Source: Flavobacteriia bacterium (lineage in GTDB: Bacteria; Bacteroidota; Bacteroidia; Flavobacteriales; Weeksellaceae). From it: a stretch of DNA of 64,000 nt. A program made the position numbers and the translations under genes. Position 1 is the stretch's first letter, and the number at the start of each line of letters is the position of its first letter. The DNA lies in NCBI GenBank assembly GCA_015999765.1, contig JAECQR010000002.1:533716-597715 (forward strand). Reading direction: 5' to 3'. Positions 33,399-49,883 of this stretch are shown here, one piece after another. The notes under the pieces were generated by a model. The model saw only the letters and a list, made by a program, of their open reading frames with translations. It searched no databases and was not told the DNA's origin.

Positions 33399-33554
33399 TA
33401 TCTTCTGATTTTCTATACAAAGTTGCACTACATCCCGTTAAGAAAATATAAAGTTTGCCTGCCGGGGTATAAAGAAAATATAAAGACTGCCTATAATGAA
33501 CTGTTAAGGAACAGCCTTCCTGCTTTCGGTGTAAGCGCGCGAAATGCAGGCGTG

Positions 33555-34235
33555 TTACTGAAACCTGTAACCCACCCCATTTTCTGTTATAATATGTTTG
33601 GGTTGGTTAGGATGATCTTCGATCTTTTTCCTCAATGTACCTACAAAAACCCTTAAATATTGGGTTTCTGTCTGGTTGCCGATTCCCCATATTTCTTTGA
33701 GAATATACTGGTGAGTTAAAACGCTGCCTGCATGTTTTGCGAACAGGATCAGCAGGTTATATTCTGTGGAAGTCAGTCTCACGATTTCACCGTTTTTCTT
33801 TAATATTCTGGCGGTAAGGTCTATTTCTAATTCTCCGACCGTAATTACACTCTCATTGTTTTCAATTGTCTGATGTCTCAGGATGGCAGAGCGCATCCGG
33901 GCCAACAGTTCTGCAGTACGGAATGGCTTGGTTAAATAATCCGTAGCACCGTTGTCGAGTGCATTTACAATGTCGGTTTCGTTATCCTGTACGGATAAAA
34001 TAATGATGGCTTTATTGTACCACTGTCTCAGTTCCTTCAGAACTTCGTGTCCGCTTCTGTCAGGCAGTCCCAAGTCCAGCAGTATCAGGTCGGGCGGGTG
34101 ACTGGCTGCCATCAGAATCCCCTGCTTACCGGTTTCTGAATGATATGTTCTGTAATTATTACTTTCTAAGGTAATCTCCAGAAGTTTACGGATCTGAGGT
34201 TCATCATCAATAATTAATATTTCACTTCTATTCAT
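33555..34235 (-). CDS. kdpE: KdpE-like response regulator
   Basis: The 226-residue protein belongs to the OmpR/PhoB class. The receiver has the acidic pair in IIDDEP, phosphoacceptor D54 in ILLDLGLPDRSG and K103 in DYLTKPF. The C-terminal winged helix includes VRLTSTEYNLLILFAKHAG and LRVFVGTLRKKIE, ending VGYRFQ. KdpE controls K+ transport genes. Its start overlaps the kinase gene end by 8 bp. No kdpFABC is in the window; kup is the adjacent transporter. Confidence 0.92.
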   Translation of the reverse strand: MNRSEILIIDDEPQIRKLLEITLESNNYRTYHSETGKQGILMAASHPPDLILLDLGLPDRSGHEVLKELRQWYNKAIIILSVQDNETDIVNALDNGATDYLTKPFRTAELLARMRSAILRHQTIENNESVITVGELEIDLTARILKKNGEIVRLTSTEYNLLILFAKHAGSVLTHQYILKEIWGIGNQTETQYLRVFVGTLRKKIEDHPNQPKHIITENGVGYRFQ

Positions 34236-35298
34236 TTTTCAAATTGTTTAAATAGGAGGTTTCGGCAGGTATTTTTAGGGTAAATGCAGCTCCATCCCCT
34301 GAATTTTCTTCTACTATCAGGGTGCCGTTCTGTGCTTCGGCAAATCCTTTTGCTATAGAGAGCCCTAATCCGCTGCCCCCGGGTCTGGTATGCGGAACTC
34401 TGTAAAATTTATTAAAAATCAAGAGCTGTTCTTCTGGCGGAATTCCCGGTCCGCTGTCTTTTACTGTAATCATACAGTTTTGGGATTGGGGGGTAACTTC
34501 TATTGTTATGCCTGTAGCGGTAGGGGTGTACTGCACCGCATTGTGGAGAAGGTTCATCAGAATCTGTTCGGTAAAACCGATGTCCAGTTTAAAAAGGGGT
34601 AAGGATTCCGGCAGTTTAAATGTGATGTGATGGGTACTGTTTGAATTGGCTTTCTGAATAATACTGTTAATCAGTTCCTCCATATCGCACCAGTCAAGTT
34701 TTGGTTTCAGAGTGCCACTTTCCAGCCTGCTCATATTGAGGATATTTTCTACCTGGCGGTTCAGGCGGATGGCTGCAATATCAATTTCATTGAGTAAATC
34801 AATCTGCTGTGCCCTGCTTAATTTATCCAGATTATCTTTGAGGGTATCTACCGTTCCCAGAATGGCAGCGATGGGTGTCCTTAATTCATGAGAGAGGGAA
34901 TTAAGCAATGTATTGTACAGTCTGATTGTTTTTTCCTTTTCCTCTCTGTCCCTGGCTTTTTTCTCTGCCTGCTTTATCTTATAACTCAGTACAGCGTTAA
35001 GCAGTGCTACAAAAAAGTAGGAAAGAAACATCAGCAGGTCTTCTGTACTGCTGATATGGATTGTGAATATTGGAGGAATAAAACAATAGTTCCAGATCAG
35101 TGCGCTGAGCAATGCAGCCAGAAGTACAGGTAAAATATCGAACAGCATCGCAATTACCGAAACAGTCAGTAAAAGAATGAGTGCTACTGTTCTGTAATTG
35201 ACTTCTTCTTTTACTGAAAAGCACAGTACCGACACCATCATCACTATGGCAATGCTTATAAGATATTGTTTTCTGTTTTTCGTTAACACCTGATGCAT
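34228..35298 (-). CDS. KdpD-type sensor histidine kinase lacking the N-terminal KdpD domain
   Basis: The 356-residue protein has four membrane helices (about 12-110), matching the DUF4118 part of KdpD, then HisKA with H137 in LLNSLSHELRTPIAAIL, and a HATPase_c domain (NLLHNAVQYTPTA, KDSGPGIPPEE, GSGLGLSIAKG). Full KdpD is about 900 residues with a cytoplasmic KdpD/Usp sensor region at the N terminus; all of it is absent here and the gene starts cleanly at the membrane part. It is presumably a short K+ or turgor sensor partnered with the overlapping KdpE gene. Confidence 0.88.
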   Translation of the reverse strand: MHQVLTKNRKQYLISIAIVMMVSVLCFSVKEEVNYRTVALILLLTVSVIAMLFDILPVLLAALLSALIWNYCFIPPIFTIHISSTEDLLMFLSYFFVALLNAVLSYKIKQAEKKARDREEKEKTIRLYNTLLNSLSHELRTPIAAILGTVDTLKDNLDKLSRAQQIDLLNEIDIAAIRLNRQVENILNMSRLESGTLKPKLDWCDMEELINSIIQKANSNSTHHITFKLPESLPLFKLDIGFTEQILMNLLHNAVQYTPTATGITIEVTPQSQNCMITVKDSGPGIPPEEQLLIFNKFYRVPHTRPGGSGLGLSIAKGFAEAQNGTLIVEENSGDGAAFTLKIPAETSYLNNLKNE

Positions 35299-35522
35299 CT
35301 GATTGAAATTTCAAGGCGTTAAAGTTAATCATACTCTTATAAAGAAATTATAAAAAAAATAAGTGGAGGATTGGTGAGGGCTGCAATAGCACCGTTACGG
35401 CTTCGCCGCGGTGAGGCTCCTCCGGAGTGACAAGGGTGTGTGTTGAGCGTGTAGGATCTGCTCAAAGGTTTGCTTCGTCATTCTGCTGTGCTGCATCCCC
35501 CGCAATGATGGGAGGAGTTTGT

Positions 35523-35802
35523 TCAGTCTATGATGAGTTCCTGGACGGATTCGTAGGGGAGGCCCATGTAGGTGCAGAATTCCTGGACGGTGAGGACCTG
35601 ATGTCCGGGTTTGTGAAGGGCGGTTTTTATTTTCAGAATCAGATTACGGCTGTAGTGTTCACTTTTTCCGGTGACGCGCTGGATCTTTGGGGTATATGCA
35701 GACTCCCGTGATCCAGGATTTTATGATTTACGTTTGTTTACTGAAAAAAGTTTTGAAATTCCAATCGATATCTTTCGGTAGGAGGACTGTAGTACCGTGA
35801 TT
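35523..35802 (-). pseudogene. Decayed copy of the small gene at 18914-19117 with its upstream region
   Basis: Read leftward, CIYPKD, VTGKSEHYSRNLILKIK and VQEFCTYMGLPYES match the intact protein. A 2-bp deletion after CIYPKD breaks the frame and the ATG is now ATA. Upstream similarity continues to the AGTACCGTGATTTTT block near 35802, as in the intact copy. The remaining 35299-35522 stretch holds short GC-rich repeat-like pieces (TTCGTCATTCTGCTGTGCTG) and no gene. Confidence 0.8.
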
Positions 35803-35824
35803 TTTTTGAAAGATGTTTCCTGTA

Positions 35825-37123
35825 TTACAATTTATACCTTTTTAAGGTGTTTTCAAAAGCAGCAGCTTTTATAAAGTTTTGTTTCTGCTTGTTTACTTGG
35901 ATGATTTCTAAAAAACCTAATTCCACTAATGATTTTAAGTCGGTTCTTGCCGTATAATTTGATATATTAAATCTTGCTTCCATTTCTTTAGTGTTCAGAA
36001 TTCTATCCTGATCATCGTGAATAATTTTTAATATTTGTGCCATTCTGTCATTCACTCCCGGTATTTTCATAAACTTCGCGGCCTGAAACACTTCTTTCTG
36101 CTTATGACTGATATACTCTTTTAATGCGACAAATGATCTGTCCATTGTCTTAAGATGATAGGTTATGAAATAAGTCAGATCATTTTCATCAGTTTCTGTG
36201 TATAAGTACGCTTTCTCATATTGGGATTTGGTATCTTTGATAATTCTGGAGATCGACAGATATTCCGTTAACCAATACCCTTTTTTAAGCATATACCAAT
36301 AAAATACAGCCCTCGCAGTGCGCCCATTTCCATCTGTAAAAGGATGTATCCAGCCAATCATAAAATGAATAATGCAGCCTTTAATTATGGGATGGATAAA
36401 CTCTTCACCATCCGTATTAAAAAATAGGCATAAATCATTGATGAGTATTCTAAGATCAGATTGTAAAGGTGGGGTATGTACAATTTCACTGTCAATATGA
36501 TTTACTACATGTACATCATCATTTTCTCTGAAGGCACCCTCATCTTCAGAATCTTCTAAGGTCTTATTTGTAATGAGATGATGAATATATAATAAATTTT
36601 CTACTGTTAAATCTTCACTTTTGTGCTGAACAATATATTTCATGGTCATAAAATTGTTCAAAATCATCTGTTCAGATTTGTTTCTCGGCTTTTTCTCCTG
36701 CTGAATCATTTCTTTAGCCTTTTTTCTCGTTGTGCTGGCGCCTTCCATTTGGCTGCTGGAAATAGCTTCTTCCATGATAGAGCTGATCATGAACTTAGTC
36801 TTGTCAGTTTCTGCAATACCAATGTTGCTTCCCAGTGTTCCACCGATATGCATGTCAAACTGATGTAATGATTTTTGAATATAATCTGTTATAACATAAT
36901 GAAAGGGATACGAATGAAATTTCACGGTTTTACTTTTTAACAATCTGTCTAACTTTATTGCACTCCAAAGTTCCAAAGGGGTGCAGTCTTTGGCTTTATA
37001 TTTTATTTTATCCCAGTATAAATAATCATCCTGTATTTTCTGCAGACTTCCATTCATCTGAAACTTAACCATAAGCGGTATTGTCTGGTCCGTTTTTTCT
37101 ATCTGAGGTGCCGGTTCAATCAT
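35825..37123 (-). CDS. Fic family protein (probable AMP transferase)
   Basis: Fic enzymes usually transfer AMP from ATP to target hydroxyl groups. The 432-residue protein has a Fic_N-type N-terminal region, an inhibitory helix motif SSSQMEG (S/T-x3-E-G, near residue 124-128) and the catalytic HPFTDGNGR at 260-268. A C-terminal winged helix (MEARFNISNYTARTDLKSLVELG) follows, as in many class II Fic-DNA-binding proteins. A longer reading from 37201 would run through the hairpin and the promoter, so the ATG at 37123 is preferred. It sits at the edge of the restriction-modification island; a toxin or regulatory role is possible. Confidence 0.9.
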   Translation of the reverse strand: MIEPAPQIEKTDQTIPLMVKFQMNGSLQKIQDDYLYWDKIKYKAKDCTPLELWSAIKLDRLLKSKTVKFHSYPFHYVITDYIQKSLHQFDMHIGGTLGSNIGIAETDKTKFMISSIMEEAISSSQMEGASTTRKKAKEMIQQEKKPRNKSEQMILNNFMTMKYIVQHKSEDLTVENLLYIHHLITNKTLEDSEDEGAFRENDDVHVVNHIDSEIVHTPPLQSDLRILINDLCLFFNTDGEEFIHPIIKGCIIHFMIGWIHPFTDGNGRTARAVFYWYMLKKGYWLTEYLSISRIIKDTKSQYEKAYLYTETDENDLTYFITYHLKTMDRSFVALKEYISHKQKEVFQAAKFMKIPGVNDRMAQILKIIHDDQDRILNTKEMEARFNISNYTARTDLKSLVELGFLEIIQVNKQKQNFIKAAAFENTLKRYKL

Positions 37124-37147
37124 TATTTTTGTAATAGCTATAGAATT

Positions 37148-37155
37148 CAAAGATA
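37148..37155 (-). promoter_or_regulatory. -7 promoter element of the fic gene
   Basis: TATCTTTG on the minus strand is a perfect TAnnTTTG, 24 nt before the chosen ATG. It supports the shorter fic start. Confidence 0.65.
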
Positions 37156-37158
37156 AGT

Positions 37159-37195
37159 AAAAACCTCGAGATTTTTTTAAAATCTCGAGGTTTTT
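37159..37195. promoter_or_regulatory. 17-bp perfect inverted repeat next to the fic promoter
   Basis: AAAAACCTCGAGATTTT and its exact complement are separated by only three bases. The A/T ends make it terminator-like in both directions, but it lies three bases from the -7 box, so it also covers the -20 to -55 region of the fic promoter and could be an operator. No gene upstream obviously needs a terminator here. Confidence 0.7.
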
Positions 37196-37223
37196 ACTCA
37201 TTGTGGGTTTTTACACCGAAGGT

Positions 37224-38279: not shown

Positions 38280-39473
38280 ATGAGCAAAAAATATTCGAAG
38301 ATAAAAGAGAACCTGAAATTTGAGGTTTTAAAGGATACTGAAAACAGTCTGGCGTATCTCACGCATTATTTTCATAATCATAAGAACGGAGTTACGCCGT
38401 ATTATAAGCCATTCGCTGAAAAGCAGCTGTATAAAATTCATGATAAATTAAATTTGATTGCGGAACCCGACTTTCAGACCTATCTTCCGATTCAGTGGGA
38501 CATCCCGTTTCCTCCTGTCAAAAATCCTAAGTTCAGTTTTATTGATCTCTTTGCCGGTATCGGAGGCATAAGGCTTGCTTTTCAGAATTTGGGAGGCAAA
38601 TGCGTCTTCACGAGTGAGTGGGATAAATTTTCAAAGGTGACCTATGATGCCAATTTTGGAAAAGTTCCGTTTGGTGATATTACGCAGATATCAGAAGAAA
38701 ATATTCCGGATCACGATATCCTTCTGGCCGGTTTTCCGTGTCAGCCGTTCTCAATCGCAGGAGTTTCAAAGAAAAATGCGCTGGGCAGAGCACACGGTTT
38801 TTTGGACGAAACACAGGGTACATTATTTTTTGATGTAGCAAGAATAATAAAGCAGAAACGGCCTAAAGCATTTTTACTCGAAAATGTAAAAAATCTTGTC
38901 TCTCATGATAAGGGAAATACATTCAAAGTAATAAAAGAGACATTGAGGGAAATAGGGTATAATATCCACTTCAAAATTCTTGATGGCAAACACTTTGTCC
39001 CTCAGCACAGAGAACGTATCTTCATTGTCGGTTTTGACAGAAATGTATATGATGGCAGGGAAGACTTTGAATTCCCCCAAATGCCGGATATAAAGTTTAA
39101 AATCAGAGATATTCTGGAAGAAGAGGTAGATCCTAAATACACATTATCCGATAAACTGTGGAATTACCTCCAGGAATATGCAAAAAAGCATAAAGCCAAA
39201 GGAAACGGTTTCGGTTTCGGGCTGACTGATCTGGACGGGATATCACGTACCATGAGCGCCAGGTATTATAAGGACGGTGCAGAAATTTTAATTCCTCAGG
39301 AAGGAAAGAATCCCAGAAGACTTACTCCCAGAGAATGTGCCAGGCTTCAGGGGTTTCCTGACAGTTTCATCATACCTGTTTCAGACAATCAGGCGTACAG
39401 GCAGTTTGGTAATTCGGTGGTAACCCCACTGATGCAGGCGGTAGGAAAAGAGATCATCAATGTTATCCTTTAA
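38280..39473 (+). CDS. DNA (cytosine-5) methyltransferase, Dcm-like, of a type II R-M system
   Basis: The enzyme methylates C5 of cytosine in a short site. The 397-residue protein has an extension of about 85 residues, then motif [11 protein letters not shown] (87-96), catalytic motif [13 protein letters not shown] with Cys154, motif VI ENV (201-203), motif VIII QHRER (242-246) and motif [10 protein letters not shown] near the end. The extended N terminus is typical of Dcm/M.EcoRII-type enzymes. It is 3 bp from an MvaI/BcnI-type endonuclease gene and then vsr, so the likely site is CCWGG or a close CCNGG variant (inference). Confidence 0.95.
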
Positions 39474-39476
39474 AAT

Positions 39477-40787
39477 ATGAATCTGCAGAATTTAAAAGCG
39501 GTTTTTGCAGACTCCGGCTGCGAAAAGATCTATATAAAACATCTGTCAGCCAATGACAATTCCAAAAATCAGGTTTATCTTGGGGGCAGTTTTGAAATTC
39601 TGAATATTTTACCCATCACTGAAATTATAAATGAAGAGGCTGGTGACTGGAACAAGGAAAGGTTTAAAGCTAAAATAGATTTTTCCTGGATCAGTGAAGA
39701 CGGTAATATATTTCCCGCACCCAAATCACAATTGATTCTCTATCCTAAATATCCGGAAGTCAGATTTTCCGGCTTTCTGGCAGGGGCCCAAAATGCGCCT
39801 TCCGGATTAATGACGCAGCGTCTTCCGGACAGACTGCTGTTCATTTCAGTAACAGGCGACGGAAAAATACTGGGATATGTGGCAGCTCCGGATTCACTGA
39901 TTGCGGCTGAATTAAGTTCAGAAAAAATCGCCGCTCAGCATGGGGTCTTTAAGGTTATCGAACTTCCGGCAGTTAAGAACAGCAGAATCCGCCTTATAAA
40001 TGAACTGCTCCGCATCCATGAAAAGGGCTGGATCAGGTCAAAGAGGCTGGACAGAAACGGCAATATTCTGCCGTGCGAATCTTCCAACTGCGGTGGATAT
40101 ACTCTGGAGGCAGAACTTGGAATCACACCGAACGGATATTCCGAACCGGACTTTCTGGGCTGGGAAATAAAACAGTTTGGAGTGACAAACTTTTCCAGGG
40201 TAAACTCGGCGGTAATCACCCTGATGACCCCAGAGCCTACAGCAGGTGTTTATAAGTCTGAAGGTGCAGAAGTATTCCTGAGAAAATACGGATATGCAGA
40301 CAGAACCGGCCGGGAAGACAGAATAAATTTTGGAGGCGTTCACAAAGCGGGAGTCCGCCACAGTTTAACGGATCTTGAGATGCAGTTGATAGGATTCGAC
40401 AGCGAATCAGGTAAAATCCGTAATACTGACGGCCGAATTGCTCTGGTAGACCGTGCCGGAAATGAAACGGCTTCCTGGAGTTTCTCATCAATGCTGCTGC
40501 ACTGGACCAGGAAACACAGTCAGGCATGCTATGTGCCGTCTCTATCTGTAAAGGAGCCGGAAAGGCAGTATCAGTACGGAAGTAATATTATGCTCGGCAG
40601 CGGAACAGATTTTCAACTGTTCCTGCAGCAGATGGATGCCGGGAACATTTATTATGATCCGGGCATCAAAATGGAAAATGCATCATCGAGGCCGGTCATC
40701 AAAAAAAGAAGTCAGTTCAGAATAAAATCCGGATTTCTTAAGAATCTGTATAAGGAAAACACAGTTCTGGATATGCTTAATCTATAG
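39477..40787 (+). CDS. MvaI/BcnI-type restriction endonuclease
   Basis: The 436-residue protein has a C-terminal half (about 180-430) with the MvaI/BcnI endonuclease pattern: GGYTLEAELGI, then SEPDFLGWEIKQF, giving a D225-x4-E230-x-K232 catalytic triad. MvaI cuts CC^WGG and BcnI CC^SGG as monomers. The N-terminal half has no recognised domain, so it is longer than MvaI (about 250 residues); the extra region may recognise DNA or regulate. The start is 3 bp after the methyltransferase stop, so the two are in one operon. Confidence 0.88.
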   Translation: MNLQNLKAVFADSGCEKIYIKHLSANDNSKNQVYLGGSFEILNILPITEIINEEAGDWNKERFKAKIDFSWISEDGNIFPAPKSQLILYPKYPEVRFSGFLAGAQNAPSGLMTQRLPDRLLFISVTGDGKILGYVAAPDSLIAAELSSEKIAAQHGVFKVIELPAVKNSRIRLINELLRIHEKGWIRSKRLDRNGNILPCESSNCGGYTLEAELGITPNGYSEPDFLGWEIKQFGVTNFSRVNSAVITLMTPEPTAGVYKSEGAEVFLRKYGYADRTGREDRINFGGVHKAGVRHSLTDLEMQLIGFDSESGKIRNTDGRIALVDRAGNETASWSFSSMLLHWTRKHSQACYVPSLSVKEPERQYQYGSNIMLGSGTDFQLFLQQMDAGNIYYDPGIKMENASSRPVIKKRSQFRIKSGFLKNLYKENTVLDMLNL

Positions 40788-40804
40788 AATACCGTTATTG
40801 CTTC

Positions 40805-41218
40805 ATGGCAGACAGACATACGGAAGAACAGAGAAGTTACAACATGAGCAGAATCAAAGGTGCCAATACAAAACCGGAGATTCTGCTCAGAAAAAGACTG
40901 TTTGCGGAAGGCTTCCGGTACCGGATCAATGATAAAAAACTACCCGGTAAGCCGGATATCGTTTTAAAAAAGTACAGAACCGTCATTTTTGTTAACGGCT
41001 GTTTCTGGCACGGGCATCAAAACTGTAAATATTTTGTTATTCCCAAAACCCGTACGGAATTCTGGATGAATAAAATAAACAGTAATATTGAGCGGGATTT
41101 AAAAAATGAAGAGGCACTGATCAAACTCGGCTGGAAGGTGATTACCGTGTGGGAATGCGATCTTAAGAAAATAATGCTGGAAGATACCGTTCACAGAGTA
41201 AAATCAAAGATTTTGTAA
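40805..41218 (+). CDS. vsr: Very short patch repair (Vsr) endonuclease
   Basis: Vsr nicks next to T in T-G mismatches made when 5-methylcytosine deaminates in a Dcm-type site. The 137-residue protein has RSYNMSRIKGANTKPE, LPGKPDIVLKKYR with D51 (matching E. coli D51), NGCFWHGH with H69 and H71, and VWECDL near the end. Position directly after methyltransferase and endonuclease fits its job of limiting C-to-T mutation at that site. Confidence 0.95.
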   Translation: MADRHTEEQRSYNMSRIKGANTKPEILLRKRLFAEGFRYRINDKKLPGKPDIVLKKYRTVIFVNGCFWHGHQNCKYFVIPKTRTEFWMNKINSNIERDLKNEEALIKLGWKVITVWECDLKKIMLEDTVHRVKSKIL

Positions 41219-41477: not shown

Positions 41478-41504
41478 ATGGCTAGTTTACCTTATTACCC
41501 ATGA
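41478..41504 (+). CDS. Possible leader peptide overlapping the ATPase start
   Basis: ATG at 41478 encodes MASLPYYP; its TGA stop overlaps the ATPase ATG as ATGA. This layout would couple translation of the ATPase to the leader. Eight codons are too few to exclude chance. The 282-bp gap after vsr is strikingly AT-rich, with a weak promoter-like TTGTTC...TATTTTG upstream. Confidence 0.3.
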   Translation: MASLPYYP

Positions 41505-44152
41505 AATTTACGTTTAACCCAAGAATCCTAAGGCATTTAGGTTATGAATTAATCACGTCCGATGAAATCGCTATTACAGAACTGATTAAAAATTCGTATG
41601 ATGCAGGGGCTGAAAATGTATATATTCAGTTCCTTTCTAGTTTAGATGAATTTGATCAAAAGCGAAGTAAAGCGTTGCTTTCGGAAAATTTATTGAAAAA
41701 AATTAAGAGCTTAAATCCATACGGAATTGTAGTTATCGAAGATGATGGTAAAGGAATGTCTTATGATATTCTGAAAAAAGGCTTTTTTGAAGTAGGGTCA
41801 ACTCTTAAAAAAGAAGAAAAACGAGATTCAAATCTTGACGACGAAAACGTAATTTTAGGAGACAAGGGTATAGGGCGCTTAGCAGCACAAAGGATTGCAC
41901 CTACTTTAATTGTGGAAACTTTGGAGGAAGACAAAAATACAGTCCACATGGTTGAGGTTAATTGGGCGGAATTTATTAACAGTAATGAGTTCGAAGCACC
42001 AGAATGGGAGGAAAAGACTCTTAGCAAGAAAGGCTATACGCGGCTATGGTTAATTGGCGATGCAACCTCTGAGATCATTTTCGAAAAATATGCTGAAAAC
42101 AAAGAAATATTTGAGATTGATTTGTTCGGGAATAAGGGAGAAAGTCTAGGCAATAAGCTTATTGTCAAAAGTGATCTGCAGACAGCATTAGGATTTCTTT
42201 ACTCACCCTTCGAAGAGAGCAGAAGCGTTATAAATATCGATATATCAGTAAATGGTGAAGGTGTTCTGCTTGATTTCAATTACCAGGCACTTGGTGTTGC
42301 TGAGTCCATCCATTCCTTTAAATCCCTATTAATTTTCGATGAAGAAGGTAATCCGGCTGATCTGAAATTTGACTTAAAAATGGTGATTCGCCCTTGGTTT
42401 CTGGAGAGAATTCACCATAGAGAACTTGGGAATGTATTATATCAAGATTGGAAAAGGTCTCCAGCCGAATACCAAAAGCTGTATGATAAATATCAGGATG
42501 AATATAACATGAACCTTTCACAAAGTTTTCTATTGTCGGAAGCAGTGAGGAAATGGAAAAAAAAGAGTCCTGATCTTAATACTAAAAACTTTATCGATTC
42601 CTTGCTGAAGTTGGCTCCCATAGAGGGGAAAATTTATTCATTTAAGCGTGATAATACTTTAATGAGCATGGCCAGAAAGTCGGCTGTGGAAAACGGATAT
42701 ATCGATTCTCAAATTAGAGTTAATTACGACATACGACCATTTCTTGACACAAATAATGGTATAAAATTGTACAGAAATTCTTTTAGAATTGCCACAATTG
42801 GTAACAGAGATAACGATTGGTTAGAGTTACAACAGAAACGAACTTCCGGACAGCAGTTTTATAGGTTTGAGCTCGGGAACGTAGTGGGATTTATAAAAAT
42901 AAATGACAAAAAACAGGAGTTTATTTATGAGACGAGTTCTAGAGAGCATTTGACCCAAAATGTTTACGCTGAATCATTACGAATTACACTGAATGAAATT
43001 CTTGAAATTTTTTCTCCCAACTTTTCAAAACTTGCTGTAGAATTGACAAAACGTTTCCTTAGCTTGGAACCTGGTTGGATACCTGAAAATACGGATGAAG
43101 AAATACAGCATGAAGTTGACAAAGCTAAAGAGATTTTCGAATCTGCTAAGCGCAATATCGCCGCTATACATGCAGCTATTACAGCAGTAAAAGATAACAT
43201 TGATCTTGATTCAGAAGAAAAGATTGCTTCCGTAAAAAGGGTATTTGAAAAATTGGTGCCTATCACACTCAATTTTGAGCAGAATATTGACGATACCACA
43301 AGGTCTTTACGAAGCGCCAATCAATTGCTGGAAGTAGCAAAACAGGAACAGGTAAGAATAAAAACGGAGGCTTATAATAATTACAAGCTAATGGCCAACG
43401 GTTTGGTTACTGAAATTATAACCCACGAGCTGCATTCGCTGTTAAGCAGTTCGGAGGAAGAAGAAAGAAAATACGATGAACATTTCCGTTTTCTTGAAAA
43501 ATATTTTCTTGAAAACGAACTTTACGAAATCAATAAAGAGCATTTTTTACCGGTTAAGAAGAAATTCGAGCACTTATTTAAAAAAATGGGTGATTTGGAT
43601 AAGTTCTATTCTTTCCTCGATAAAACATTTATTAAGAGTGAAGGTAATAGGGCTTTAGTTCCTACAGATGTGAAAGATGAACTGGATGTTATTATTGATA
43701 GATTTAAATTCAGGCTAAAAAGACACAAAGTTAATGTTGATGTTTCCTCAGTCACTAATATTTGGGAAGTTCCTAAAGGAGCTCTACTACATGTATTTTA
43801 TAATCTAATTGACAATTCGATCTACTGGATCAGACAGCGTCAAAAGATTTCGAAATCAAACAACAAGTATTTAAGGAGTCAGCCAGATTCTATTGTGATC
43901 CGGTCGACGTCTCCAAACACATTGCAGTTTTATGATTCTGGCACCGGAATCTTAGATAAATATCAGCATGTTTTGTTCAACGAATTAGTTTCGGGAAAGG
44001 AAGACGGCCGGGGAATGGGTTTGTATATTGTGAGGCAGTTCCTGAAATCTTTTGGAGGTGATATCGAATTATTGCCAATGAGAAATGAATATGGAAATCG
44101 CTATATATTTGAAATACGTTTAAACCAACAACATACCGAGGATAATGAATAA
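41501..44152 (+). CDS. Dual GHKL ATPase protein with histidine-kinase-like C terminus
   Basis: The 883-residue protein has an N-terminal Hsp90/MutL-like ATPase: N box ELIKNSYDAG (27-36), G1 DDGKGM (81-86), G2 GDKGIGRLA (120-128). A long middle region with helical coiled coil (about 540-640) follows. The C terminus looks like a histidine kinase: THELHSLL with H642 as a possible phospho-histidine, N box NLIDNS (768-773), G1 DSGTGI (812-817), G2 GRGMGLYIV (836-844). The conserved Pro after the usual H-box is missing. No membrane helix. It overlaps the next gene by 8 bp, so the two are coupled. GHKL ATPases of MutL/MORC type are known in restriction-modification contexts. Confidence 0.85.
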   Translation: MKFTFNPRILRHLGYELITSDEIAITELIKNSYDAGAENVYIQFLSSLDEFDQKRSKALLSENLLKKIKSLNPYGIVVIEDDGKGMSYDILKKGFFEVGSTLKKEEKRDSNLDDENVILGDKGIGRLAAQRIAPTLIVETLEEDKNTVHMVEVNWAEFINSNEFEAPEWEEKTLSKKGYTRLWLIGDATSEIIFEKYAENKEIFEIDLFGNKGESLGNKLIVKSDLQTALGFLYSPFEESRSVINIDISVNGEGVLLDFNYQALGVAESIHSFKSLLIFDEEGNPADLKFDLKMVIRPWFLERIHHRELGNVLYQDWKRSPAEYQKLYDKYQDEYNMNLSQSFLLSEAVRKWKKKSPDLNTKNFIDSLLKLAPIEGKIYSFKRDNTLMSMARKSAVENGYIDSQIRVNYDIRPFLDTNNGIKLYRNSFRIATIGNRDNDWLELQQKRTSGQQFYRFELGNVVGFIKINDKKQEFIYETSSREHLTQNVYAESLRITLNEILEIFSPNFSKLAVELTKRFLSLEPGWIPENTDEEIQHEVDKAKEIFESAKRNIAAIHAAITAVKDNIDLDSEEKIASVKRVFEKLVPITLNFEQNIDDTTRSLRSANQLLEVAKQEQVRIKTEAYNNYKLMANGLVTEIITHELHSLLSSSEEEERKYDEHFRFLEKYFLENELYEINKEHFLPVKKKFEHLFKKMGDLDKFYSFLDKTFIKSEGNRALVPTDVKDELDVIIDRFKFRLKRHKVNVDVSSVTNIWEVPKGALLHVFYNLIDNSIYWIRQRQKISKSNNKYLRSQPDSIVIRSTSPNTLQFYDSGTGILDKYQHVLFNELVSGKEDGRGMGLYIVRQFLKSFGGDIELLPMRNEYGNRYIFEIRLNQQHTEDNE

Positions 44153-46409
44153 ACTAAAGGAGATAATTAAGACTCTAAAAGCTTATACTATTCTTATTGT
44201 TGAGAATGAATTCACTTATATTGAGGATTCAAAACTGATTTTAGGTAGGTTTTGCATGCTAACTCCAATTAACAGAGAGAGATTAATAAACGAACTGGCG
44301 ACCAAGAATCTATTAATTTCTGAGTCTCTGAAAGTTTTTAATGAGAAATGGCAGGATATTGCTAACCATGATATGCTTAGATTTGAAAGAATGGGAGCAG
44401 ATTATCCTGATAGATATTTACAAGAAATAGGGCATCGGGAAATTATTGAAGAACCTATATCATTACTTAAACTTCAAATTGATGAAGATGAAGAAAATAT
44501 ACTTAAATCAATTTTTCTTAAGCACGGAATTTTTGAAGATGAAACAGTGCCTAAATACAAAGAAATATTAGAATGCGTACAATCAATACCAGAGTGTCGC
44601 TTAATAATTAAAAATGAACAGCCAACTTCAGCCCAGTGGGATGATTTTAAAACTGAAATTGAAAGCTCCATTTTGGAAACTCATAGCCACTTTTGTTTGT
44701 CAATTATTGACAAAAGTCTAGGCGGTGGTATGCAGGAGGGAAAAGTGTTAATAAAGGATTTAATTAAAAGTCATAAAAATGACGAGAGGTACAATCATAT
44801 ATGCTGTTTATATACTAGTACAGCAGTAGGGGGGGTTCTTATTAACTACGAAGATTACTTCATACAAGAGATTTCGAAGAATAGTCATGATTGTCTCTCG
44901 GATATTGTCGCCGCTTTGGCTCAATCGGCTTATGCCGAAGTTTTTAATTCCTTACGTGTAAAAACTATTGAGAGCGCTGAGCAAACTTTAAGAATTGTAC
45001 TTAAAAATCAAAAAAACATTAAACACATAGTCGATAAATCATTGGTAGAAGGAATACCTGCGTATGATGCCATTAAATATTGGAATGAGCTTTCGGTACA
45101 GAATGAGTTCACCGATCGAGAAGTAAAGGATTTCAAATTTATTGCAAGCCTTACAAGTTTCTTTAATAATGATTTTTTAAATGATCACCCAAGTTCCTCT
45201 GACATTAGTATCGAGCTAAAAAAGCTTAATTCTTACGAACTTTTTGACTATAATGTCAATAAAAAGCATTTATCAATAGCCCCTGGCGATATATGGAGAG
45301 CAGATAATGGAGATTACTATATTCTCGTTGGACAATTGTGCGATATGATGCTGAGAAAGGAATCAAACAAAAGAAATGCTAGAATAGGTGAATTATTCAA
45401 AATTGTATTCGGAACATCTCAGAAAACAAAATTTGATATTATTGTTAGCAGTGGCAAGAAATCTGTGTATGTGGATAATTTTTATGACGATGTTGAAGAA
45501 GATTACAAAACCATACGTGTAGATATAACGTCACCAAATATCTTCTTAGCAAATTTAAAGATTTTAGATTTGGCAATGTACAATGATAAGGGATTATGTT
45601 CTATTAGTATTAATTCAGAGTTAGAGGAAACGGTGAGACAAATATTACCTACTAGTAGAGATTCATATCATGAAATTCTTAAAGAAGAATATAAAAAAAT
45701 TCTAGAACTCGACGAACTTCTTTTAGCAGCAACTTTAGAGGCAGACCCTATTGACTTTTCAAGACTAAAATTTTATAGTGAAGATAATACGATATCTCAC
45801 GGGTTGCGACGTATTTGTCGATTAAAGGGTAGATACTTTGATTCTTTATATAATCAATATCTCAATAATAAGGGAAGGATTGATTTAAATCTTATCGATA
45901 ATAGCGCGGAGATTGGAGAAGCTAAAACACTTTACTTGCAATATGGGAATGAGAGCAGCTCAAAAAAAAGTATTTCAATAACTCTATATACGAGCAGACA
46001 TACTAGTTATTTTTCTAAGAAAGAATTACTCTCTCTATTACCAGATGAATTTCAGGAGCTAGCTAATTATTTTGATGATGAGATCAAACTGACGGATAAA
46101 AAAATAGCTGAGTTTATCATAAATGACGATGATGATTCAATTCTTGCAAAATTTAGATATAGAATCAGTGAGACGAAATTAGCGGAAATAACCGAAACAG
46201 AATTTGATTATAGATCTTTATTTAAATCGCACCAAAATCGCTACAAAGATAAATCGTTTCGGGATAATTCGGAAACAGCTGAACAAAAGCGTTTTTCGAA
46301 CAATAAGATAAGCTTGCAAGAGCTTCTTTCTGGTATTATTATACAGGATACTAATGAAAAAGTAATCTTCGTAAATGGAGTATTAAAAATTGAGCAAATT
46401 GAACAATAA
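44145..46409 (+). CDS. Receiver-like domain protein, partner of the dual ATPase
   Basis: The 754-residue, AT-rich protein has an N-terminal segment with the layout of an atypical receiver: acidic E20/E22 in YTILIVENEF, then after a long insert CLSIIDKSLGGG with D189 as the likely phosphoacceptor, HICCLYTSTA with T224/S225, and K245 in QEISKNS. The remaining 500 residues are helical with no catalytic motif I know. It overlaps the ATPase upstream by 8 bp and the methyltransferase downstream by 20 bp, so the three are translationally coupled. I infer an unusual two-component relay; an unseen nuclease fold cannot be excluded. Confidence 0.7.
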   Translation: MNKLKEIIKTLKAYTILIVENEFTYIEDSKLILGRFCMLTPINRERLINELATKNLLISESLKVFNEKWQDIANHDMLRFERMGADYPDRYLQEIGHREIIEEPISLLKLQIDEDEENILKSIFLKHGIFEDETVPKYKEILECVQSIPECRLIIKNEQPTSAQWDDFKTEIESSILETHSHFCLSIIDKSLGGGMQEGKVLIKDLIKSHKNDERYNHICCLYTSTAVGGVLINYEDYFIQEISKNSHDCLSDIVAALAQSAYAEVFNSLRVKTIESAEQTLRIVLKNQKNIKHIVDKSLVEGIPAYDAIKYWNELSVQNEFTDREVKDFKFIASLTSFFNNDFLNDHPSSSDISIELKKLNSYELFDYNVNKKHLSIAPGDIWRADNGDYYILVGQLCDMMLRKESNKRNARIGELFKIVFGTSQKTKFDIIVSSGKKSVYVDNFYDDVEEDYKTIRVDITSPNIFLANLKILDLAMYNDKGLCSISINSELEETVRQILPTSRDSYHEILKEEYKKILELDELLLAATLEADPIDFSRLKFYSEDNTISHGLRRICRLKGRYFDSLYNQYLNNKGRIDLNLIDNSAEIGEAKTLYLQYGNESSSKKSISITLYTSRHTSYFSKKELLSLLPDEFQELANYFDDEIKLTDKKIAEFIINDDDDSILAKFRYRISETKLAEITETEFDYRSLFKSHQNRYKDKSFRDNSETAEQKRFSNNKISLQELLSGIIIQDTNEKVIFVNGVLKIEQIEQ

Positions 46410-47562
46410 AACATTTGATATATTGTCTCTCTTTTCGGGCGGGGGATTTTTAGATATCGGATTCATCAATAATGGATTCCAAGTTGTAGAGGCTGTAGAG
46501 ATTCAGCCATATTTTATCAAAGCATATAATGGAGGGCTTAAAAGTTACTTTAAGGATTCTGACAACTACTATGTAAGACAGAGCTTAGTAAGTCACACTG
46601 AGATAGTTCAACAAACTGATGCATCCTGCCCGAAAGAACAAGAAAGGCTTCAAAAAAGCTACACTGATTTATCGGGCATCATCGGAGGTCCGCCATGCCA
46701 GGACTATTCCGTGGGTGGAAAGAATGGAGGAATAGAGGGAGAAAGGGGACGTTTGATATACAGCTATTTTACAATTATAAAAAATAATAAGCCAGATTTT
46801 TTGTTTTTCGAAAATGTTAAAGGCCTTTACAACACTAAAAAACATAGGATTTCATTTGACGCTTTTGTCAAAGACATCGAAAGTGAAGGCTATTATGTAT
46901 GGCATGATCTGCTAAATGTGTTGGAATATGGATATCCGCAAGACCGTCCAAGGATTGCTTTAGTAGCGTTTAAAAAAACGATATGTCACGTACTTCAGGC
47001 AGGAGGGTATACACTGGAATTTGATAACAATATTTTAAAATTTGAACATTCTGATGACTTGTTATTTAGATGGCCCGAGCCGCTTTTTAAAAACCCAAAG
47101 AATCTAAATTGGCCCGCAAAATGGAAGTTTGGTAATGATGTTACTGAATTCAACGCCACTCATGTACCTCAGCTATGTGCAGAATCTGTATTAGGAGATC
47201 TAACAGACCAAGACCCAAACCAGTGCGAATTCTTTGTCCCCAAATCTGCACGTTTTACTCAGGTTGAAGAAGGTGACACAAACAGAAAATCTTTTAAACG
47301 TCTTCATAGATTCAGATATAGCCCTACGGTGGCCTATGGAAACAATGAAGTTCATCTGCATCCGACAAAAGCTAGGCGTCTCAGTGTTCGGGAGGGCTTA
47401 AGATTACAGACAGTACCTGATGAATATGTTTTACCGACAAATATTCCCTTAACTCACAAATTTAAGTTAATCAGCAATGGTGTTCCTACTGCCAAAGCGG
47501 AACTAATTGCTAAAGAGATTCGACGTACACTTATAAATTATCACAGCTGTATGGAAAAGTAA
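46390..47562 (+). CDS. DNA (cytosine-5) methyltransferase of the ATPase-receiver module
   Basis: The 390-residue protein has motif I ILSLFSGGGFLDIG, catalytic motif IV GGPPCQDYSVGG with Cys103, motif VI FFENVKGL (E141), motif VIII QDRPR (184-188) and motif X SNGVPTAKAELIA. A Glu/Lys-rich insert separates motifs I and IV. No ATG precedes motif I, so it starts at TTG (46390, or 46399), inside the end of the receiver gene. It differs from the Dcm-like enzyme and is in a much more AT-rich setting, so it was probably acquired separately. No dedicated endonuclease gene is beside it. Confidence 0.93.
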   Translation: MSKLNNKTFDILSLFSGGGFLDIGFINNGFQVVEAVEIQPYFIKAYNGGLKSYFKDSDNYYVRQSLVSHTEIVQQTDASCPKEQERLQKSYTDLSGIIGGPPCQDYSVGGKNGGIEGERGRLIYSYFTIIKNNKPDFLFFENVKGLYNTKKHRISFDAFVKDIESEGYYVWHDLLNVLEYGYPQDRPRIALVAFKKTICHVLQAGGYTLEFDNNILKFEHSDDLLFRWPEPLFKNPKNLNWPAKWKFGNDVTEFNATHVPQLCAESVLGDLTDQDPNQCEFFVPKSARFTQVEEGDTNRKSFKRLHRFRYSPTVAYGNNEVHLHPTKARRLSVREGLRLQTVPDEYVLPTNIPLTHKFKLISNGVPTAKAELIAKEIRRTLINYHSCMEK

Positions 47563-48113: not shown

Positions 48114-48977
48114 CTATTTTCTGTATTGATTGTAATCTGAATCTTCAAAAACACGGCCTTCATATTTTGAAATTAGATTGTCGATTTCGTGTATTTTACG
48201 TTGATATTCAGTAATATTATCTGATTCTTTTTCAAGCTTTAAAAATGCCATTGTTTGCACAGAAAGTAGAGTATTATAGCTTAACACATCACTTAAGATT
48301 CTTAAATAGTGTCCCTGCTCAGCCTTTAAATTTTCTTCTGCTTCTCTGTTTCTTCTTTCATTAATAATTCCTATTCCAGTTTCATCACCATGGATGATGT
48401 GGCTCCCCATTCTATAGTTGAAAGTAAGTAGCATTATATAATCTCTCATGATGTTATTTTTATTAGCGGACAGCTCTAAAACCATTTGACTAAATGACCA
48501 TTTTTGTTCTAATTTACTCCTCTCTTTTTTTGGCCATTTTAACTTTAATCTTTTCTCCTCTTCTTCGGAAAGAACTAATGGTAAAAATGCAATCTTCGAA
48601 AAATCATTATCGTCCAAGAGTTCTAAATTTAATTTTGCTTGGGAAGACATTTTAAGAGATTGAATCTCTGCTAGGGATTTCCAGTATTCGTCTATTTTGA
48701 TGTCGACATCAGGTTGTTCACCATCTAGCATATAAAGGTATTTAACAAAAGTCTCCTGAGTAGATCTTAAAATAATTTCGCAATCCCATAAAAGGCCATT
48801 AATACACAAAGTAATAACAGTCTCAAACCGCTCCATTATAAATTCCGCTAATGGAAAAACCATTTTTAGGCGATCAAAATTTTCCTTTACGATAAACAAG
48901 AAATGGTAATTTATAGCATTTATAATTTCTAAATACGTCTCCGTTATCACTTCCTTATCTTGAATCCAGTCATCCAT
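48114..48977 (-). CDS. DUF5677-like helical protein of the defence island
   Basis: The 287-residue all-helical, charged protein starts MDDWIQDKEVITETYLEIIN. The segment CINGLLWDCEIILRSTQETF then VKYLYML resembles the core of DUF5677-type proteins, often seen near defence genes; their function is unknown to me. FNYRMGSHIIHGDETGIGI is a conserved-looking His-rich stretch. It points opposite to the methyltransferase trio. A TAATTTTG element lies near 49052-49059 on its strand, about 75 nt upstream of the start. Confidence 0.6.
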   Translation of the reverse strand: MDDWIQDKEVITETYLEIINAINYHFLFIVKENFDRLKMVFPLAEFIMERFETVITLCINGLLWDCEIILRSTQETFVKYLYMLDGEQPDVDIKIDEYWKSLAEIQSLKMSSQAKLNLELLDDNDFSKIAFLPLVLSEEEEKRLKLKWPKKERSKLEQKWSFSQMVLELSANKNNIMRDYIMLLTFNYRMGSHIIHGDETGIGIINERRNREAEENLKAEQGHYLRILSDVLSYNTLLSVQTMAFLKLEKESDNITEYQRKIHEIDNLISKYEGRVFEDSDYNQYRK

Positions 48978-49373
48978 TTATTTTACATTCTAATGCGTGA
49001 TTTAAAACCAATTATGATAATTTTCGAGAAGTAGGTGCAGACTATTACATTCAAAATTAATATTAATCCTGTCGCAGTTTTTTTTAAGCTCTAGTGGCAA
49101 GTCGCAACTAATCTTTATTCTGTTAAAGTAAAAATTCAAATAAAATTTCAAAATTTTTCTAAAGTTAAAAACTGTAAATTCTCACTGGTTTTTCACTCTA
49201 GAAATATACTGAGTCTTTACATTCAATAAATGGAATTGAAGTCGAATTTTGCTTGTGGCCTAGCCTAAATGCATCAATAGTTTTCATATCATAATTTCTA
49301 GCAAAAGGTAAAAGAAAGCTTACAGTTAAAATTACGGTTTCCCGTAAAAGCAAAAAATACCAGCTCTCATTGT
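48978..49373. other. AT-rich spacer without genes
   Basis: About 400 bp between two leftward genes. Apart from the -7-like TAATTTTG (minus strand, 49052-49059) I see no ORF, hairpin or repeat worth naming. Confidence 0.5.
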
Positions 49374-49883
49374 TTATTCCGCCCTCATATACACATTCTT
49401 CCTCCCATCCTTTTCACCCACTTTAACAATATTATCGCTTACAAGATTTCTCATCACCCCGGCAATATTCGATGAACTTACTTGTGTAGCATTTATCATT
49501 TTTAATCTAGCAAGCTCGTCTCTTATATCTGCGACTGTTTTACCATTTTTTAAGAAATTACCCTCAATAATATATTGCTTTATTTTAGCAGTTAGTTTAG
49601 TTGCCTCTAGCATTTTGGAAGATAACTTAGTGATGGGTCCTAGTTTGATGTTGAAATCATTGAATGTGGCAAAAGGATATTCCACCGAAACTGAATAATT
49701 AATATAAGAATCAATAGTCTTTGCATCGCCGCTTTCTACTTTCGTCACTGTGCTTTTCGATAACCCAGTCATATAGATAATATCGGGAATGGAGTAACCT
49801 TTCTTAATTCTTATTTTTCGTAATGTTTCACCAAGTTTCTTTCTGTATAAAGTTGCTGTAGTATTATTAAAATCAATATCCAT
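49374..49883 (-). CDS. XRE family helix-turn-helix regulator with winged C terminus
   Basis: The 169-residue protein has an XRE HTH in about 13-60 (LGETLRKIRIKKGYSIPDII, GLSKSTVTKVESGDA). The C-terminal half (about 95-168) looks like a second winged helix: DIRDELARLKMIN, then SSNIAGVMRNLVSDNIVKV and GRKNVYMRAE. It is divergent from a promoter that drives the tandem RNA candidates at 49961, and could control them and itself. It may also be the controller of the defence genes. Confidence 0.82.
   Translation of the reverse strand: MDIDFNNTTATLYRKKLGETLRKIRIKKGYSIPDIIYMTGLSKSTVTKVESGDAKTIDSYINYSVSVEYPFATFNDFNIKLGPITKLSSKMLEATKLTAKIKQYIIEGNFLKNGKTVADIRDELARLKMINATQVSSSNIAGVMRNLVSDNIVKVGEKDGRKNVYMRAE

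What the first reader, a model, noticed from the sequence alone, without database searches (positions are those of the whole stretch)
41501..47562. Coupled trio: dual GHKL ATPase, receiver-like protein and C5-methyltransferase without a visible nuclease
Three genes overlap in series (8 bp, then 20 bp), so they are made together. Gene 1 has two separate GHKL ATPase domains, an Hsp90/MutL type and a histidine-kinase type with a possible H642. Gene 2 has receiver-like landmarks (D189, T224, K245). Gene 3 is a cytosine methyltransferase. MutL/MORC-type ATPases in restriction-modification contexts are established; a phosphorelay-like pair tied to a methyltransferase is what looks new. One idea is that methylation marks self and the pair senses unmethylated or invading DNA.
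Basis: partly seen in the sequence, partly recalled or inferred. Interest (0 to 1): 0.85.

Follow-up and report, generated by a model that had tools for sequence, protein, structure and literature searches.

The report
Methylation-linked phosphorelay with MazF-fold output
Three overlapping bacterial genes encode a DNA methyltransferase, a protein with two ATPase domains, and a partner with a receiver-like half and a half predicted to fold like the toxins MazF and CcdB; together they would likely form an alarm against foreign DNA, a diverged variant of a gene set described in 2021 whose function is still untested.

The parts
41501..44152 (+). Gene 1: dual-GHKL ATPase with kinase-like C-terminus, 883 aa
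   Evidence: HATPase_c_3 61.1 bits, HATPase_c 44.8 bits; motif residues of both ATPase domains invariant in 52 of 52 aligned relatives
41558..42001 (+). N-terminal MORC/Hsp90-type ATPase domain (residues 20-167)
   Evidence: PF13589 match
42755..42787 (+). S5-like motif NGIKLYRNSFR (residues 419-429)
   Evidence: aligned stretch across 15 dual-GHKL proteins; resemblance to the MORC S5 motif GhXhhpXXRhl quoted in PMC2292703 judged by eye and off by one position
43424..43426 (+). H642, predicted phospho-accepting histidine
   Evidence: invariant in 52 of 52; H followed by E or D in 15 of 15 chosen dual-GHKL proteins of several operon types
43781..44122 (+). C-terminal histidine-kinase-type ATPase domain (residues 761-874)
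   Evidence: PF02518 match
44145..46409 (+). Gene 2: receiver-like protein with MazF/CcdB-fold output domain, 754 aa
   Evidence: AlphaFold2 models and structure comparison
44160..44936 (+). Receiver-like region (residues 6-264), with E20, D189, T224, K245
44709..44711 (+). D189, predicted phospho-accepting aspartate
   Evidence: invariant in 34 of 34
45270..45881 (+). MazF/CcdB-fold domain (residues 376-579)
45921..46406 (+). Fast-changing C-terminal tail of gene 2 (residues 593-754)
46390..47562 (+). Gene 3: C5-cytosine DNA methyltransferase, 390 aa
   Evidence: PF00145 177.6 bits
38280..41218 (+). Neighbouring, separate R-M set: Dcm-type methyltransferase, MvaI_BcnI endonuclease, Vsr
   Evidence: PF00145 332.5, PF15515 162.3, PF03852 117 bits; not beside the trio in six other loci; endonuclease matched in 0 of 6 trio genomes and in the own genome

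Best explanation
The trio is a conserved set of a C5-cytosine methyltransferase that likely marks the cell's own DNA and a dual-ATPase kinase-like protein plus receiver-like partner that are predicted to act as the restriction arm, which would be switched on by His-to-Asp phosphotransfer when unmarked DNA is met. Inferred steps: the N-terminal MORC-like ATPase of gene 1 engages DNA; its state is passed through the S5-like and helical region to H642; H642 phosphorylates D189 of gene 2; this frees the MazF/CcdB-fold domain of gene 2, which acts on nucleic acid or on a host target, alone or with a partner such as the HNH nuclease found beside some relatives. Shown by calls: gene order, conservation of the relay residues and of both ATPase motif sets, and sequence homology of the output domain across methyltransferase classes. 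Predicted only: the folds of gene 2. Untested: phosphotransfer, DNA sensing, effector activity, defence.
For: Order kept in 8 of 8 complete loci. H642 52 of 52, D189 and K245 34 of 34. A sister operon (L101) has a Pfam-recognised Response_reg, 32.6 bits over a cut-off of 30.2, in the gene after the dual-GHKL gene. Output domain found by profile in five operons with N6/N4-type methyltransferases (methyltransferases), MazF/CcdB fold predicted. Gene 1 and gene 2 identities correlate at 0.92 over 28 pairs of loci. HNH genes directly follow gene 3 in L028 and L031 and lie in the L099 operon. Low G+C, 33-36% over most of the trio, fits horizontal gain.
Against: No experiment. Gene 2 shows no sequence similarity to MazF and Foldseek alone gives no match at E<=0.001 for either model. 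Receiver rows are not well separated from unrelated folds. The Pfam-recognised receivers of L101 and L097 do not match gene 2's N-terminus by profile (prob 0.5). No DNA-sensing step is visible in sequence. One relative (L028) has a shorter gene 1 whose database copy lacks the HATPase_c_3 match. Two of 15 chosen dual-GHKL proteins have a degenerate G1 box.
Confidence: 0.5

Rival explanations
1. The pair is a regulatory two-component system that tunes linked R-M genes or the methyltransferase rather than being an effector arm, as Bellieny-Rabelo et al. speculated for the Response_reg_2 class.
For: Proposed in PMC8011034; His-Asp residues are conserved.
Against: Gene 2 matches no DNA-binding family in Pfam, NCBIfam or PADLOC at E<=1; the pair occurs with several methyltransferase classes and in some operons with an HNH gene; the predicted output fold is that of toxins, not of a transcription factor.
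Confidence: 0.25
2. The MazF/CcdB-fold domain is not an effector but a non-catalytic barrel that binds nucleic acid or recruits a separate nuclease (HNH, McrBC-like or an unlinked enzyme).
For: No MazF sequence signature; HNH genes beside some relatives; an AAA_5 gene in the L097 operon.
Against: HNH directly follows gene 3 in only 2 of 8 complete trio loci; ten residues of the domain, eight of them other than Gly or Leu, are invariant in 40 of 40 sequences across operon types, as expected of an active site, though binding would also conserve residues.
Confidence: 0.15
3. The trio belongs to the adjacent MvaI/BcnI R-M set, as an accessory to an ordinary type II system.
For: Same strand and directly adjacent; MvaI_BcnI is listed among nucleases near Response_reg_2 genes in PMC8011034.
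Against: 282-bp gap; neither the MvaI_BcnI gene nor the upstream methyltransferase lies beside the trio in six other loci; the endonuclease is matched in 0 of 6 of those genomes while the same search finds it in the own genome.
Confidence: 0.05

Closest known systems
Response_reg_2 (PF19192) / HEF_HK (PF19191) two-component-like pair with C5-methylases (Bellieny-Rabelo et al. 2021, PMC8011034; parts 1-5 of 7 read)
   Same: Receiver-like protein adjacent to a soluble protein with HATPase_c_3, a His helix and HATPase_c; C5-methylase, Vsr and R-M nucleases nearby; conserved His followed by an acidic residue; conserved Asp, Thr, Lys.
   Different: Neither Pfam model matches the window's proteins; methyltransferase gene last instead of first (8 of 8 PF19192 loci have it first); gene 2 is longer (754 against about 525-575 aa); homology only by profile through intermediates (prob 81).
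paraMORC GHKL ATPases of R-M operons (Iyer et al. 2008, PMC2292703; parts 1-2 of 4 read)
   Same: N-terminal GHKL ATPase and S5-like region, R-M context with C5-methylases and Vsr.
   Different: The paper's paraMORC text that I read describes no histidine-kinase half and no receiver partner; here there is no helicase gene beside the trio.
MazF/CcdB toxin superfamily
   Same: Predicted fold of gene 2 residues 376-579.
   Different: No sequence similarity; different invariant residues (the MazF active site is recalled, from no call); fused to a receiver-like region; no antitoxin gene recognised beside it.
Detocs, defensive two-component system (glossary passage in PMC11249213)
   Same: Three-gene system built on a two-component relay.
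   Different: Its best-described effector degrades ATP; the passage names no methyltransferase; here the sensor has a MORC-like ATPase.
VcSduA, a Shedu protein with GHKL N-terminus (PMC12137116, passages)
   Same: GHKL ATPase that its authors hypothesise controls an effector domain in anti-phage defence.
   Different: Single protein with a PD-(D/E)xK nuclease; no kinase, receiver or methyltransferase described in the passages.

Membership tests
Response_reg_2/HEF_HK system | Receiver protein matches PF19192 | tested here: not met
   No match for gene 2 at E<=1, none listed for its 34 relatives (25 of 26 families shown), none in the own genome
Response_reg_2/HEF_HK system | ATPase protein matches PF19191 | tested here: not met
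   Five families for gene 1 at E<=1, HEF_HK not among them
Response_reg_2/HEF_HK system | Remote full-length homology of the receiver protein | tested here: met
   prob 81, E 1.2e-5, 431 colinear columns when N6/N4-operon proteins are included; without them only prob 8-34
Response_reg_2/HEF_HK system | HATPase_c_3 plus HATPase_c, His followed by acidic residue | tested here: met
Response_reg_2/HEF_HK system | Adjacent C5-methylase | tested here: met
   gene 3 overlaps gene 2, but downstream instead of upstream
MORC/paraMORC ATPases | N-terminal GHKL domain followed by S5 domain | tested here: inconclusive
   GHKL domain met; S5 motif judged by eye only, no gene 1 structure
MazF/CcdB superfamily | SH3-like barrel fold | tested here: met
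MazF/CcdB superfamily | Sequence match to PemK_toxin family | tested here: not met
   No Pfam match; profile comparison with 25 PemK proteins prob below 1
MazF/CcdB superfamily | RNase or gyrase-poison activity | not testable with these tools
   Needs assay
Classical type II R-M | Recognisable endonuclease in the unit | tested here: not met
   No nuclease family matched over a curated cut-off in genes 1-3; gene 1 matches models of BbrUII/HgiDII-type GHKL restriction enzymes far below the cut-off and mainly through the ATPase domain (57.9 bits against 550; 27 bits)
Two-component signal transduction | His-to-Asp phosphotransfer | not testable with these tools
   Residues conserved; transfer needs assay
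Detocs | Kinase, receiver and ATP-degrading effector genes | not tested
   PADLOC scan gave no Detocs-named hit for genes 1-2, but it was not checked that the 2023 library holds such models

The most novel reading that the evidence does not exclude
A restriction system run by a His-Asp phosphorelay: a MORC-like sensor kinase detects DNA that lacks the partner methyltransferase's mark and phosphorylates a receiver whose MazF/CcdB-fold domain is the effector; one ATPase-receiver pair design serves C5, N6/N4 and Eco57I-type methyltransferases alike.
Probability: 0.33. Interest if true: 0.85.

Novelty: new variant of a known kind. Interest (0 to 1): 0.62.

Why it matters
Self/non-self discrimination by methylation normally uses an enzyme that reads and cuts in one step. 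If the pair is the restriction arm, bacteria also have a version with a separate, reversible phosphorylation switch between DNA sensing and effector, which could amplify, delay or cancel the response. The class has been known by sequence since 2021; the parts of that paper that I read assign no known domain to the rest of the receiver protein. A predicted MazF/CcdB-fold domain shared across methyltransferase classes gives a concrete output to test.

Tried and rejected
Sequence homology of the output domain to MazF was tested and not found. A first MazF set was read partly on the wrong strand; it was redone.

Direct profile comparison of gene 2 with Response_reg_2 was weak: prob 22; full length prob 8, N-terminal halves prob 34, C-terminal halves prob 15 with E 0.0018, not clear of a mismatched control at E 0.0036. 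A first run used a wrong (global) option and was dropped. The comparison became convincing only after the N6/N4-operon proteins were added as intermediates. The iterated HMM of the output domain never reached Response_reg_2 proteins significantly (best E 0.39).

The apparent independence of gene 3 within the C5 clade (r 0.20 with gene 1) vanishes without L095 (r 0.81); it is told as one exchange.

No relative of gene 2 was found in IMG/VR; phage records gave two partial gene 1 matches. An empty-site comparison within the genus was begun and dropped. No Bacteroidota-type promoter pattern was found in the gap before gene 1.
Full report
OBSERVATION. Gene 1 carries HATPase_c_3 (61.1 bits) and HATPase_c (44.8 bits); gene 3 is a C5-methylase (177.6 bits); gene 2 matches no Pfam, NCBIfam or PADLOC family at E<=1. 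G+C is 33-36% in three of the four 2-kb bins over the trio (39% in the first); outside 36-52 kb, 18 of 24 bins lie at 41-47%.

CONSERVATION. A protein search with gene 2 found 34 proteins covering 87-100% of it; those that bear organism names are Bacteroidota. D189 and K245 are invariant in 34 of 34, T224 is T in 33 and S in 1, position 20 is E or D in 34. Gene 1 has 425 relatives at E<=0.001; 120 were listed and I chose 52 for alignment. H642, E643 and the 16 motif residues checked in the two ATPase domains are invariant in 52 of 52. Seven loci with gene 2 relatives were found in named genomes: six hold genes 1-2-3 in order, the seventh begins inside gene 2 and goes on with gene 3. In 395 genomes of the order gene 2 was matched in 3: the window's own, L095 (a complete trio) and L094 (C-terminal domain only). 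So 8 of 8 complete loci, the window included, keep the order; genes 1-2 overlap in 7 of 8 and genes 2-3 in 8 of 8. In L028 gene 1 is shorter at its N-terminus, and its database copy has no HATPase_c_3 match.

SEPARATE FROM THE NEIGHBOURING R-M SET. None of the six named complete loci has the MvaI_BcnI gene or the upstream methyltransferase beside the trio. The MvaI_BcnI protein is matched in 0 of those 6 whole genomes; the same search finds it in the window's own genome. Vsr lies downstream of the trio in L028 and L032, upstream in the window. HNH genes directly follow gene 3 in L028 (26.9 bits) and L031 (20.9 bits, just under the cut-off of 21.4).

WHAT IS ALREADY KNOWN. Bellieny-Rabelo et al. 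2021 (PMC8011034; parts 1-5 of 7 read) described Response_reg_2 (PF19192) receiver-like proteins, 91.6% linked to GHKL proteins, most of them with HATPase_c_3, HEF_HK (PF19191) and HATPase_c, near C5-methylases, Vsr and R-M nucleases including MvaI_BcnI, and suggested a two-component system that controls R-M. Iyer et al. 2008 (PMC2292703; parts 1-2 of 4 read) described paraMORC GHKL ATPases in R-M operons. Neither Pfam model matches the window's proteins. In 395 genomes of the phylum PF19192 is matched in 16, in 8 over its cut-off. I fetched those 8: the order is methyltransferase, a gene of about 970-1000 aa, Response_reg_2 gene in 8 of 8. The middle gene was checked by Pfam in two (HATPase_c_3, HEF_HK, HATPase_c in both); in L022 it was placed by size and position only. 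The window's trio is thus a diverged branch with another gene order. The legend of one figure of DefensePredictor (PMC13092281; passages only) lists HATPase and REC among domains of predicted defence systems; I could not see which operons.

THE DOMAIN CROSSES METHYLTRANSFERASE CLASSES. A profile of residues 366-590 from the 34 gene 2 relatives finds the same domain in the gene after the dual-GHKL gene in L064 (Hymenobacter monticola plasmid, 67.9 bits), L096 (52.9), L065 (Rhizobium etli plasmid, 35.9), L094 (27.2) and, only in round two, L104; the best reversed decoy has E 20 in round one and none is listed later. L064 and L065 are 2 of 94 plasmid records with a gene 1-type match. The methyltransferase gene of these five operons is of the N6_N4_Mtase type: over the Pfam cut-off in L064, L096 and L065, below it in L094 and L104, which are tied to L064 and L096 at 186-339 bits. 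A search with the single L064 protein in 296 genomes of the phylum matched 2, one being the window's own gene 2 (33% identity, E 2.9e-8). Profile comparison: N6/N4-operon receivers against gene 2, prob 99.5, E 7.5e-23, 513 columns; all of these against Response_reg_2, prob 81, E 1.2e-5, 431 colinear columns; a mismatched control (output domain against the Response_reg_2 N-terminus) prob 3.

Six more dual-GHKL loci were chosen from the top of a long list (where 363 of 395 genomes match, many with partial matches of HATPase regions only). L101: Vsr, C5-methylase by profile, dual GHKL, then a protein with PF00072 at 32.6 bits. L097: C5-methylase, a second C5-methylase-like gene by profile, two further genes, one AAA_5, then dual GHKL and a weak PF00072 (E 0.001). 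L098: N6_N4 methyltransferase (93.3 bits), dual GHKL and a receiver-like gene, by eye, cut by the contig end. L099: dual GHKL, receiver-like gene by eye, HNH (30.8 bits) and an M.Eco57I-type methyltransferase (137.3 bits). L100: no methyltransferase found. The receivers of L101 and L097 do match the output domain weakly (prob 35, E 4e-4) but not gene 2's N-terminus (prob 0.5). In 15 of 15 dual-GHKL proteins chosen across these types the H-box His is followed by E or D; 2 of the 15 (L024, L026) have a degenerate G1 box; in 11 of 11 chosen receivers of the gene 2 and N6/N4 types D and K are present. The ATPase-receiver pair is thus the constant part and the methyltransferase the exchangeable one.

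RATES. Over the 28 pairs of 8 trio loci, gene 1 and gene 2 identities correlate at 0.92 (Mantel p 5e-5), gene 1 and gene 3 at 0.20 (p 0.25), gene 2 and gene 3 at 0.29 (p 0.20). Without L095 the values are 0.87, 0.81 and 0.63, all with p below 1e-3. L095 pairs a methyltransferase 70% identical to the window's with gene 1 at 41% and gene 2 at 27%, which looks like one exchange.

MECHANISM. Most likely, methylation marks self, the MORC-like ATPase of gene 1 engages DNA, its state sets kinase activity at H642, phosphate passes to D189, and the MazF/CcdB-fold domain is freed as effector or recruits a nuclease. Anatomy and conservation are shown, folds are predicted, every functional step is inferred. 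The main rivals are a regulatory role and a purely recruiting role of the output domain.

LITERATURE LIMITS. Searches that combine MazF with receiver, GHKL or R-M terms, two-component or GHKL with R-M and defence terms and the Pfam names showed no description of this output domain or of the methyltransferase exchange in what I saw of their results. Only open-licence papers are held, and 10 of 28 papers and 15 of 127 were listed.

VERDICT. Real and conserved; its kind is already published; the branch, the predicted MazF/CcdB-fold output and the coupling to several methyltransferase classes are what is new.

Noticed in passing
38280-41218: Complete MvaI/BcnI-type R-M set with Vsr directly upstream of the trio, absent by search from six other trio genomes.
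   Followed up: partly
L099 9031-14355: Dual GHKL, receiver-like gene, HNH nuclease and M.Eco57I-type methyltransferase in one run: a sister operon with an evident nuclease.
   Followed up: partly
L097 1937-12147: Two C5-methylase-like genes, a 222-aa gene, an AAA_5 (McrB-like by my reading) gene and a 558-aa gene precede the dual-GHKL/receiver pair.
   Followed up: no
L100 5253-13102: Dual GHKL followed by a 687-aa receiver-like protein with the G-D ... C-D motif, by eye, but no methyltransferase found.
   Followed up: no
L064 10563-12359: The receiver-like protein of the Hymenobacter plasmid operon is annotated 'cytochrome P450', which its sequence does not support.
   Followed up: no
L095 6287-12435: Trio whose methyltransferase is 70% identical to the window's while gene 1 is 41% and gene 2 27%: a likely methyltransferase exchange.
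   Followed up: yes
L028 6549-9014: Gene 1 of this trio is shorter at the N-terminus; its database copy P0055 has only the HATPase_c match. Truncation, start choice or assembly not resolved.
   Followed up: no
45921-46406: Gene 2's C-terminal 160 residues change fastest (24-28% identity in 6 of 7 other complete trio loci) and the N6/N4-operon proteins end before them.
   Followed up: partly
31404-37201: Sensor kinase with DUF4118 and OmpR-type regulator beside a K+ transporter gene, and a Fic/DOC gene, all on the minus strand left of the R-M genes.
   Followed up: no
48114-49883: DUF5677 gene and a weak HTH gene on the minus strand right of the trio, in the lowest-G+C bin of the window (31%).
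   Followed up: no
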